Positions 56,089-58,780 of a DNA stretch of 58,780 nucleotides are shown here, piece by piece (the stretch's first letter is position 1; every line of letters begins with the position of its first letter). The stretch spans positions 1-58,780 of the forward strand of contig JABBNZ010000017.1 in the NCBI GenBank assembly GCA_019352035.1, in the 5' to 3' direction. The position numbers and the translations under genes are program-made. The notes beneath the pieces were generated by a model, which ran no database searches, was not told where the DNA came from, and saw only the letters and a list, made by a program, of their open reading frames with translations. Source of the DNA: Pseudomonadota bacterium (GTDB lineage: Bacteria; Pseudomonadota; Gammaproteobacteria; Steroidobacterales; Steroidobacteraceae).

Positions 56089-56769
56089 ATGCCCATGCTA
56101 CTCTGGGCCGGTGGCTTCACCATTGAGAGAGTCGTGCCTTCCAAGCGTGCCGCCAGCCCGCCCCTAGGGAGAGCGCGGTGCGGGTGGGTTCCGGCGGGCG
56201 ATGGCGAGTACGCCCGCTATCACGACGAGGAGTGGGGCCGGCCCGTGCGCGAAGACCGGCGGCTCTTCGAGATGCTGACGCTCGAGGGCGCCCAGGCAGG
56301 CTTGTCCTGGTCCACCATTCTGCGCAAGCGTGCCGCGTATCGAAAGGCCTTCGCCGGGTTCGACCCGGCGAAGGTCGCCCGCTTCGACGCGCGGCGCCGC
56401 GCCGCGCTGCTTCAGGACTCCGGCATCGTCCGCAATCGGCTCAAGATCGATTCCACCGTGAGCAATGCACGGGCCTTTCTCGCCGTGCAGCGGGAATTCG
56501 GCTCCTTCAGCCGATATCTCTGGGACTGGGTCGGCGGCCGCCCCGTCCGCAACGGGTGGCGGACCCGCAGCCGGGTGCCCGCCCGCAGCGAGCTCAGCGA
56601 CCGGATCTCCCGGGACCTGAAGAAGCGCGGCTTCCGATTCGTCGGCTCGACGATCACCTATGCATACCTGCAGGCCGTCGGCGTCGTCAACGATCACACC
56701 GCGGGGTGCTATCTTTACCAGGCCAGGCGCGCGGCAGCGCGGGTGGCCCGCAAGGCCTCCCGCTCTTAA
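56089..56769 (+). CDS. tag: DNA-3-methyladenine glycosylase I
   Basis: Removes 3-methyladenine from alkylated DNA. The core starts RCGWVPAGDGEYARYHDEEWGRP, with LFEMLTLEGAQAGLSW and, at the C-terminus, GFRFVGSTITYAYLQAVGVVNDH, which are the Tag blocks; zinc ligands are Cys in RCGW and the Cys/His near the C-terminus (NDHTAGC). About 27 residues precede the family start from the ATG at 56089; a GTG at 56134 with GAGAG upstream may be the true start. Confidence 0.9.
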   Translation: MPMLLWAGGFTIERVVPSKRAASPPLGRARCGWVPAGDGEYARYHDEEWGRPVREDRRLFEMLTLEGAQAGLSWSTILRKRAAYRKAFAGFDPAKVARFDARRRAALLQDSGIVRNRLKIDSTVSNARAFLAVQREFGSFSRYLWDWVGGRPVRNGWRTRSRVPARSELSDRISRDLKKRGFRFVGSTITYAYLQAVGVVNDHTAGCYLYQARRAAARVARKASRS

Positions 56770-56801: not shown

Positions 56802-57176
56802 ATGAAATCGCTCCTAGCGGCGGTGGCCGTCGCCGCAGCCGTCCTTGCACCCGCAGCCTATGCCGATTGCAGCTATCCGCAGACCCCGAGCCACCTTCCG
56901 GATGGCAGCACCGCGACACTCAAGGAGATGCTCGCCGGGATGAAGTCGGTGAACAAGTACAACCACCGGATGGAGGGGTACCTCGCCTGCATCAAGCTCG
57001 AGCGGGATAGCGCCGAGGCGCACGCCGGCACCAAGCTGAGCAAGCAGCAGAAGCAGCAGCTCGAGGACATCGAGATTCAGAAGCACAATGCCGCTGTCGA
57101 CCAGCTGCACACGGTGGCCAACCGCTTCAATGCGCAAGTGAAGATCTTCAAGACGCGAGGCAAGAAATCAGGCTGA
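56802..57176 (+). CDS. Small secreted periplasmic protein of unknown function
   Basis: A 124-aa protein with a clear signal peptide (MKSLLAAVAVAAAVLAPAAY, cleavage after AYA) and a mature part starting DCSYPQTPSHLPDG. It has two Cys in the mature chain, possibly a disulfide, and a Lys/Gln-rich helical second half (KLSKQQKQQLEDIEIQKHN). AGGGGA lies before the ATG at 56802. It sits between tag and moeA, on the same strand. I do not recognise a named family. Confidence 0.75.
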   Translation: MKSLLAAVAVAAAVLAPAAYADCSYPQTPSHLPDGSTATLKEMLAGMKSVNKYNHRMEGYLACIKLERDSAEAHAGTKLSKQQKQQLEDIEIQKHNAAVDQLHTVANRFNAQVKIFKTRGKKSG

Positions 57177-57178
57177 CC

Positions 57179-57490
57179 GTGATCGATCCCTCGCAGGCCG
57201 ATGAGCTCATCGCGCAGCACCTGACGTGTCTGCCGATCGAGTCCCTGCCTCTGGCGCAATGCGCCGGAGCGGTGCTGCGGGAGAACATCTACGCGGAGCG
57301 GGACCAGCCGCCTTTCGACCGCGTGACCATGGACGGCATTGCGCTCGATAGCCGCGGCGTGCGCGGCGGCATGCGCCGCCTGCAGATCCAGGCAATGCAG
57401 GCGGCCGGCGATCCGCCGCTCACGCTGGCCGGACGCGGCCACTGCATAGAGGTCATGACCGGCGCGGTGTTGCCTTCCGGCTGCGAAACT
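57179..57490 (+). pseudogene. moeA: Molybdopterin molybdenumtransferase MoeA, N-terminal 104 codons only
   Basis: The start GTG at 57179 reads [20 protein letters not shown] and then [22 protein letters not shown] and VMTGAVLPSGCET, the MoeA domain I-II start (normally about 400 aa). After GCET the sequence no longer resembles MoeA and instead matches the antisense of minC. The open frame runs on to 58441 by chance. Either a real rearrangement or, more likely, a join of two unrelated sequences. Confidence 0.8.
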
Positions 57491-57809
57491 TGGCGATCAG
57501 TGGCAACCCCATGCGCTTGGCCAGCGCCTCGGTTTCGCTGGTGCCGTAGGCAATGCCCACCGGCAGCATGCCGGCGCTGCGCACTGCTTCCAGCAGGGCG
57601 TCCACGGTGCCGTCGTCGGGCAGGTCGAGCAAGTGGCTCAGATCCAGCACGACCGCTGCACGGGAGAACATCTGCGGCGCGGCGCGTACACGCCGCTCCA
57701 GCTCGTCACACAGCGCGGCAGCATCCACCCGGCGCACGCGAACGCACGCCATGCCAACCTGGCCAAAGCGCAGGTCGCAGGCATCGGAAGTATCCATTTG
57801 CACACTCAT
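57483..57809 (-). pseudogene. minC: Septum-site inhibitor MinC, N-terminal 109 codons only
   Basis: Starting at ATG 57809 the product reads DLRFGQVGMACVRVRRVDAA, VVLDLSHLLDLPDDG and VGIAYGTSETEALAKRMGLP, ending LIAKFR, which is the MinC N-terminal domain as in xanthomonads. The beta-helix C-terminal domain and the following minD and minE are missing because the sequence switches to moeA. Its start overlaps the GNAT stop (ATGA), so it belongs to a GNAT-minC operon. Confidence 0.85.
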
Positions 57810-58426
57810 GGATGCCGTTCTCCGGCAATCCTTTGCTGGCTGGGTGCAGCAGTCACCGCATGCAGACGCTCGGTCAGCCAGGGCACATCGGGCAGGCCGC
57901 CGTGATCAAGCCAGGTCTCGCGGACATAGCCGTAGCTGGCCAGGTCCCTGGCCAGCAGGCTCACCTTCGGTCCGTCGGTGCCCATCTGTTGCTGATCGAC
58001 TTCCTGAAAGCCATAGGTGCCGTGGAACAGCACAACGACATCGTTGCGCGGCTCCAGGAACACCTCGCAGGTGAGCAAGGGTACGCGTACCTCGGCGTAG
58101 CTGTGCACGTCGCAATAAAAGATGCGACCAAGACCGTGGCGACGGTAGCTGTTCGCAATCACGATACGGTCGATGTAGACGAACTGGGAGTAGTGCTCGG
58201 AGAACCAGCGATAGTTCGGGCTGTCGTAGTGGGCCCCCTCGCGCAGCGCGATCAGAAAGCCCGCCAGATGACCGTCGATTTCGGCCACGCGGAAATACTC
58301 GGCGTGCTCGAAAAAATAACGCAGGTGACTGGTGTCGAGGGCGAGGATGGAGCGGCCGGCAGCGTTGTTCAGCGCCAGCACGGCATCCAGGTCTTGCTCG
58401 CGCACGTCGCGGATGGCAAGGGCCAT
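57806..58426 (-). CDS. GNAT-family N-acetyltransferase
   Basis: A 206-aa acetyltransferase. MALAIRDVREQDLDAVLALN is the GNAT start; the acetyl-CoA loop is in VIANSYRRHGLGRIFYCDVHSYA, preceded by FVYIDRIV. The C-terminal part has NDVVVLFHGTYGFQEV, typical of the amino-acid/antibiotic-type GNATs. The start ATG at 58426 has GGAG upstream. It is coupled to minC. It lies on the far side of the moeA/minC joint. Confidence 0.82.
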   Translation of the reverse strand: MALAIRDVREQDLDAVLALNNAAGRSILALDTSHLRYFFEHAEYFRVAEIDGHLAGFLIALREGAHYDSPNYRWFSEHYSQFVYIDRIVIANSYRRHGLGRIFYCDVHSYAEVRVPLLTCEVFLEPRNDVVVLFHGTYGFQEVDQQQMGTDGPKVSLLARDLASYGYVRETWLDHGGLPDVPWLTERLHAVTAAPSQQRIAGERHP

Positions 58427-58643
58427 TCGTTGCTCCGCTAGATTGAATATAGATTGAATGCCAAGGACAAGACCGATCGAATCGGTCCCACACAAGTCGT
58501 CATTATGACATGTGGCCGGGGCCTTACATACGCCGCTGGCAGATGTAAAAGCTTTGTAAGGGAGACATTCAGCCAGTCAGGCGGCCGACAGGCATGACTT
58601 CTCGCGCATTGCGCGAAATGTCGCCACGGCCAATGATGCGCCC

Positions 58644-58780
58644 ATGCGTTGGCCATTTTTCAATCATATCCGCCTGCTGCGCTATGCGGGCTTCTTCACC
58701 TACCTTTCGGTGGGTACCCCGCTGATTACCAACTGGGCGATCGAGCGGCTCAGCCAGTTGCAGCGGCCCAATTTCTCGTT
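58644..58780 (+). CDS. Membrane protein N-terminus (partial, runs off window)
   Basis: From the ATG at 58644 the frame stays open to the window end (45 codons) and reads MRWPFFNHIRLLRYAGFFTY, then LSVGTPLITNW, a basic start followed by a hydrophobic segment. It could be a sensor kinase or other inner-membrane protein; too little is present to name. It is divergent from the GNAT gene. Confidence 0.5.
   Translation, partial: MRWPFFNHIRLLRYAGFFTYLSVGTPLITNWAIERLSQLQRPNFS

What the first reader, a model, noticed from the sequence alone, without database searches (positions are those of the whole stretch)
57179..57809. moeA and minC fused head-on inside both genes at an 8-base shared sequence
moeA (+) stops matching its family after GCET at about 57490, and minC (-) stops after AKFR at 57483. 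The bases GCGAAACT (57483-57490) fit both genes. Two broken core genes joined at a short shared sequence are the pattern of an assembly or library chimera; the right side (GNAT-minC and a membrane protein) looks xanthomonad and may be another organism. If real, minC loss by inversion would be remarkable.
Basis: partly seen in the sequence, partly recalled or inferred. Interest (0 to 1): 0.75.

Follow-up and report, generated by a model that had tools for sequence, protein, structure and literature searches.

The report
Assembly chimera splitting moeA
The odd joint between two broken genes is most likely a false join, in which the end of one bacterium's sequence was glued to about 3 kb from a Rhodanobacter-like bacterium during sequencing or assembly; it is an artefact rather than biology.

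Summary
Left of 57483-57486 the contig is native. Right of it, 3.1 kb running to the contig end (60581) is collinear with a Lysobacteraceae MAG at 86% DNA identity and with Rhodanobacter genomes. The missing 3' part of moeA lies in the same assembly at base 1 of contig C195, in frame; 9 of 9 same-genus loci place it 85 bases after the joint and keep moeA whole, with moaA downstream. The host's own minC is complete, beside a MinD-type ATPase and minE on C157, so minC was not lost. In 57 other genus genomes the foreign GNAT has only two distant hits (34-37%). The piece's composition lies outside all 184 native windows, though also just below all 36 Rhodanobacter windows. Correction: relatives support 3-4 shared bases (GCG or GCGA), not 8; 4 or more are shared at 2.5% of random joints. 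Whether the join arose in the library or the assembler cannot be told without reads.

The parts
56089..56769 (+). tag, DNA-3-methyladenine glycosylase I (native side)
   Evidence: Pfam Adenine_glyco E 1e-76; homologue upstream of moeA in 4 of 9 same-genus loci, within the 1.5 kb or less held
56802..57176 (+). small hypothetical protein with a signal-peptide-like start (by eye), native neighbour of moeA
   Evidence: no Pfam or NCBIfam match at E 0.001; homologue directly upstream of moeA in 9 of 9 same-genus loci, partial in L060
57179..57486 (+). native moeA, 5' part only; the 3' part starts at base 1 of contig C195
   Evidence: MoeA_N E 4.2e-21; two partial matches in own genome; 85 bases missing by 9 of 9 same-genus loci; C195:1-804 matches MoCF_biosynth and MoeA_C
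57483..57486 (.). joint; 3-4 bases fit both parents as judged by their relatives
   Evidence: left relatives, right relatives
57483..57809 (-). foreign Rhodanobacter-like minC, N-terminal part only
   Evidence: MinC_N E 2e-9; similarity to the Rhodanobacter-like loci starts here
57806..58429 (-). foreign GNAT acetyltransferase
   Evidence: Acetyltransf_1 E 1e-5; 88% aa identity to L009, 75-85% to L010-L041 and L043; in 57 other genus genomes only two hits, at 34 and 37%
58644..58780 (+). start of foreign sensor histidine kinase gene, interrupted by a 10-N gap; a LuxR-type response regulator follows near the contig end at 60581
   Evidence: HisKA_3 and Response_reg/GerE matches beyond the window; collinear with Rhodanobacter-like loci

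Best explanation
A false join between two organisms. The native sequence of C69 stops inside moeA, 85 bases short of where contig C195 resumes. It was joined, at a 3-4 base overlap, to a piece of a Rhodanobacter-like genome that is cut inside that organism's minC. The foreign piece itself contains a 10-N gap. Shown: the two likenesses, the position of the joint to within 4 bases, the native continuation of moeA and the complete native minC elsewhere, and the 85 missing bases as judged by relatives. Inferred: that the foreign organism was in the same sample, and the cause. So short an overlap is below usual assembler k-mer lengths (recalled), so the likely routes are a chimeric library molecule or read that the assembler extended, or a scaffolder or gap-closer that merged contig ends on a few matching bases.
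For: The right side is collinear with L009 at 86% DNA identity from 57478 to 60567; 14 further loci align in one piece over more than 3.1 kb at 76-81%. The GNAT protein is 88% identical to L009. The moeA 3' part starts at C195:1 in frame, 85 bases on by 9 of 9 same-genus loci, and is followed by moaA as in 9 of 9. A complete minC, a MinD-type ATPase and minE are on C157. The rest of the foreign minC was not found in the own genome (3 of 3 candidates scored), nor were the Rhodanobacter-like flanks at more than 72% identity over more than 60 bases (40 of 362 candidates scored). The GNAT has no close relative in 57 other genus genomes and the joint is in no other moeA there. Composition score +0.010 against a maximum of -0.014 in 184 native windows.
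Against: No reads, so coverage and spanning support were not tested. The composition score also lies below all 36 Rhodanobacter windows (minimum +0.018). The closest relative is only 86% identical, so the exact donor was not identified. A contig break near C195:1 would also be seen if a real insertion ended there. Parts of the assembly read N or were not scored, so the absence of other foreign pieces is not complete.
Confidence: 0.95

Rival explanations
1. A real horizontal transfer: a Rhodanobacter-like chromosomal segment inserted into moeA in this strain or part of its population, with 85 bases of moeA deleted and C195 marking the far junction.
For: Foreign and native DNA lie in one contig, and the moeA 3' part is on a contig that starts near the break.
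Against: The genes recognised on the foreign piece are minC, GNAT, a histidine kinase and a response regulator, none of them a mobile-element gene, in an order shared with Rhodanobacter. The piece does not return to native sequence before the contig end. C195 is moeA from its first base. Not seen in 57 other genus genomes.
Confidence: 0.03
2. One reading: an inversion within one genome fused moeA and minC and cost the cell its minC.
For: The two gene parts do meet head-on.
Against: A complete minC lies in a minCDE-type cluster on C157. The broken minC is a second, Rhodanobacter-like one whose other part was not found in the genome.
Confidence: 0.01
3. The reverse assignment: the contig belongs to a Rhodanobacter relative and the left side is the intruder.
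For: None beyond the join itself.
Against: The left 57 kb and the sampled contigs of the assembly share a composition unlike Rhodanobacter. The moeA 5' part matches same-genus genomes at up to 78% aa identity in a conserved order.
Confidence: 0.01

Closest known systems
Chimeric contigs and contamination of the kind GUNC is meant to detect (PMC8201837; search listing with start of abstract only)
   Same: One contig carries genes of two lineages, split at one point.
   Different: Only about 3 kb at one end of a 60.6 kb contig, with 3-4 shared bases. GUNC itself was not run.
Microhomology chimeras made in library preparation (PMC8674242; search listing with start of abstract only)
   Same: Two unrelated molecules joined at a few shared bases.
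   Different: That paper concerns formalin-fixed tumour samples; the library behind this assembly is unknown, and a library origin is not shown here.

Membership tests
Inter-organism assembly/library chimera | Each side resembles a different lineage, changing at one point | tested here: met
   Left: same-genus moeA. Right: Rhodanobacter-like from 57483 onward
Inter-organism assembly/library chimera | The true continuation of the native side exists elsewhere in the assembly | tested here: met
   moeA 3' part at C195:1 in frame, 85 bases on by 9 of 9 same-genus loci
Inter-organism assembly/library chimera | The native orthologue of the foreign broken gene is intact | tested here: met
   minC with both domains, a MinD-type ATPase and minE on C157
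Inter-organism assembly/library chimera | Composition changes at the joint | tested here: met
   0 of 184 native 3-kb windows reach the right piece's score; but it also lies below all 36 Rhodanobacter windows
Inter-organism assembly/library chimera | Change of read coverage, or lack of spanning reads, at the joint | not testable with these tools
   no reads held
Real insertion by horizontal transfer | Foreign DNA flanked by native DNA on both sides | tested here: not met
   foreign similarity runs to 60567 of 60581; no far junction is seen; C195 is moeA from base 1. A contig break exactly at a far junction is not excluded
Real insertion by horizontal transfer | Same joint in a related genome | tested here: not met
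   of 57 other genus genomes one has a 3-mismatch copy of the 24-base joint pattern, not in moeA
minC loss by inversion | No other minC in the genome | tested here: not met
   complete minC on C157, 188.5 bits, over the cut-off

The most novel reading that the evidence does not exclude
Some cells of this species really carry a Rhodanobacter-like chromosomal block inserted in moeA, acquired by joining at 3-4 shared bases, which would break molybdenum cofactor synthesis and add a foreign two-component system.
Probability: 0.03. Interest if true: 0.4.

Novelty: not a real feature. Interest (0 to 1): 0.06.

Why it matters
As biology it very probably does not. As a warning it does: the assembly is rated 95.05% complete and 2.61% contaminated, yet a foreign end on one contig makes a false moeA break, a false second minC fragment and a false gene transfer. 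The last 3.1 kb of C69 should be set aside before the genome is used.

Tried and rejected
A first per-base comparison of the joint (34 loci) was anchored on BLAST starts that contained a small gap, so many rows were out of register. It was discarded and replaced by an ungapped anchoring on 57487-57586. There 35 of the 44 fetched loci (L009-L043) were given and none was skipped; L044-L052, the more distant ones, were not given. A first alignment of moeA relatives read L054, L059 and L061 on the wrong strand; corrected. sought a motif in 11 loci and found it in 10; L063 was missed. The count of 9 is the same-genus loci L054-L062; the tenth, L064, is from another family and gave no VHRRG anchor. 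Second moeA-like copies in G008 and G010 were not examined. The moaA query was in the wrong frame; redone.

A 3-mismatch copy of the joint pattern in G047 (L068) was read in six frames. It is not in moeA; one frame looks MoaE-like (by eye, recalled, not searched). Rejected as chance similarity.

GC alone (66.5% in the 3 kb to the left, 62.6% on the right) was rejected as evidence, because stretches of the window well left of the joint also fall to 61%.

Full report
What was claimed. moeA (+) and minC (-) meet head-on at an 8-base shared sequence near 57483-57490, perhaps a chimera.

Where the window lies. The window stops at a run of 10 N; the contig then continues to 60581. Among 40 sampled stretches of this genome, 6 hold a run of exactly 10 N, 3 read wholly N and 1 has a run of 895; the two stretches taken on purpose (C69, C157) also hold a 10-N run each. 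At the gap in C69, the 7 Rhodanobacter-like loci tested all have 51 bases, so the 10 N look like a fixed scaffolding placeholder (inference).

The left side is native. The moeA 5' part matches MoeA_N. Of 12 other same-genus genomes searched, 9 have a homologue at 63-78% aa identity; G004, G007 and G009 have none and are 63-80% complete. In the 9 loci, the small hypothetical protein lies upstream (9 of 9), and the moeA C-terminal part and then moaA follow downstream (9 of 9).

The rest of moeA is not lost. The own genome gives two MoeA_N matches: the window's 5' part and one that begins at base 1 of contig C195. C195:1-804 is open in frame 1 and matches MoCF_biosynth and MoeA_C; a frame that aligns with moaA-like genes of the 9 loci follows (the name moaA is recalled from its sequence). 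Placed by each of the 9 loci, C195 base 1 lies 85 bases after 57486. The gene is thus cut by a gap in the assembly.

The right side is foreign. A scan of genome contigs with the GNAT protein gave 44 loci; the best is a Lysobacteraceae MAG at 88% aa identity, followed mostly by Rhodanobacter and Dyella at 75-85%; the weakest are 5 actinobacterial loci (names placed by recall) at 37-40%. At DNA level the stretch from the joint to 60567 is collinear with L009 at 86%, and 14 further loci align in one piece over more than 3.1 kb at 76-81%. It holds a cut minC, GNAT, a histidine kinase and a LuxR-type response regulator. Six such genomes tested have one minC each, over the family's cut-off. Of 58 genus genomes searched, own included, only the own one has this GNAT at high identity; two others have 34 and 37% hits. 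A 12.6 kb stretch around the L009 locus matches the own genome closely only in this piece; the other 12 matches are at 72% or less, or under 60 bases long (40 of 362 candidates scored).

The host's minC is intact. C157 holds a complete minC (188.5 bits), a MinD/ParA-type ATPase and minE in a row.

Composition. With 5-mer Markov models trained on native sequence and on 18 Rhodanobacter-like loci (their homologous region left out), the right 3.1 kb scores +0.010 per base. The 184 native windows have mean -0.034 and maximum -0.014; the 36 Rhodanobacter windows have mean +0.030 and minimum +0.018. The piece is outside the native range, but also just below the Rhodanobacter range, so composition says 'not native' more firmly than it says 'Rhodanobacter'.

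The joint. Moving right, moeA similarity holds through 57486 and fails at 57487 in 9 of 9 same-genus loci. Moving left, minC similarity holds to 57483 and fails at 57482 in 35 of 35 loci; at 57486, 4 of 35 have the window's base. The overlap is 3-4 bases. In 200,000 random joints between native and Rhodanobacter-like sequence, 3 or more shared bases occur in 7.1%, 4 or more in 2.5% and 8 or more in 0.03%. The shared bases are therefore only a weak hint of a microhomology mechanism. The native organism's own bases beyond 57486 are not held; if they happened to equal the window's, the overlap would be longer.

Verdict. A chimera made in the library or in the assembler; the step at which it was made was not determined. 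Published work on chimeric contigs and on microhomology chimeras was seen only as search listings with starts of abstracts.

Noticed in passing
58781-58790 of contig C69 (just past the window end): A run of exactly 10 N inside the foreign histidine kinase gene; the 7 Rhodanobacter-like loci tested have 51 bases there, so the gap length is a placeholder.
   Followed up: yes
56802-57176: A small protein with a signal-peptide-like start (by eye) and no Pfam or NCBIfam match lies directly upstream of moeA and is conserved there in 9 of 9 same-genus loci.
   Followed up: partly
L068 (G047:C199:2547-2570): A 3-mismatch copy of the 24-base joint pattern in another genus member, outside moeA and in a frame that looks MoaE-like by eye; probably chance.
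   Followed up: partly
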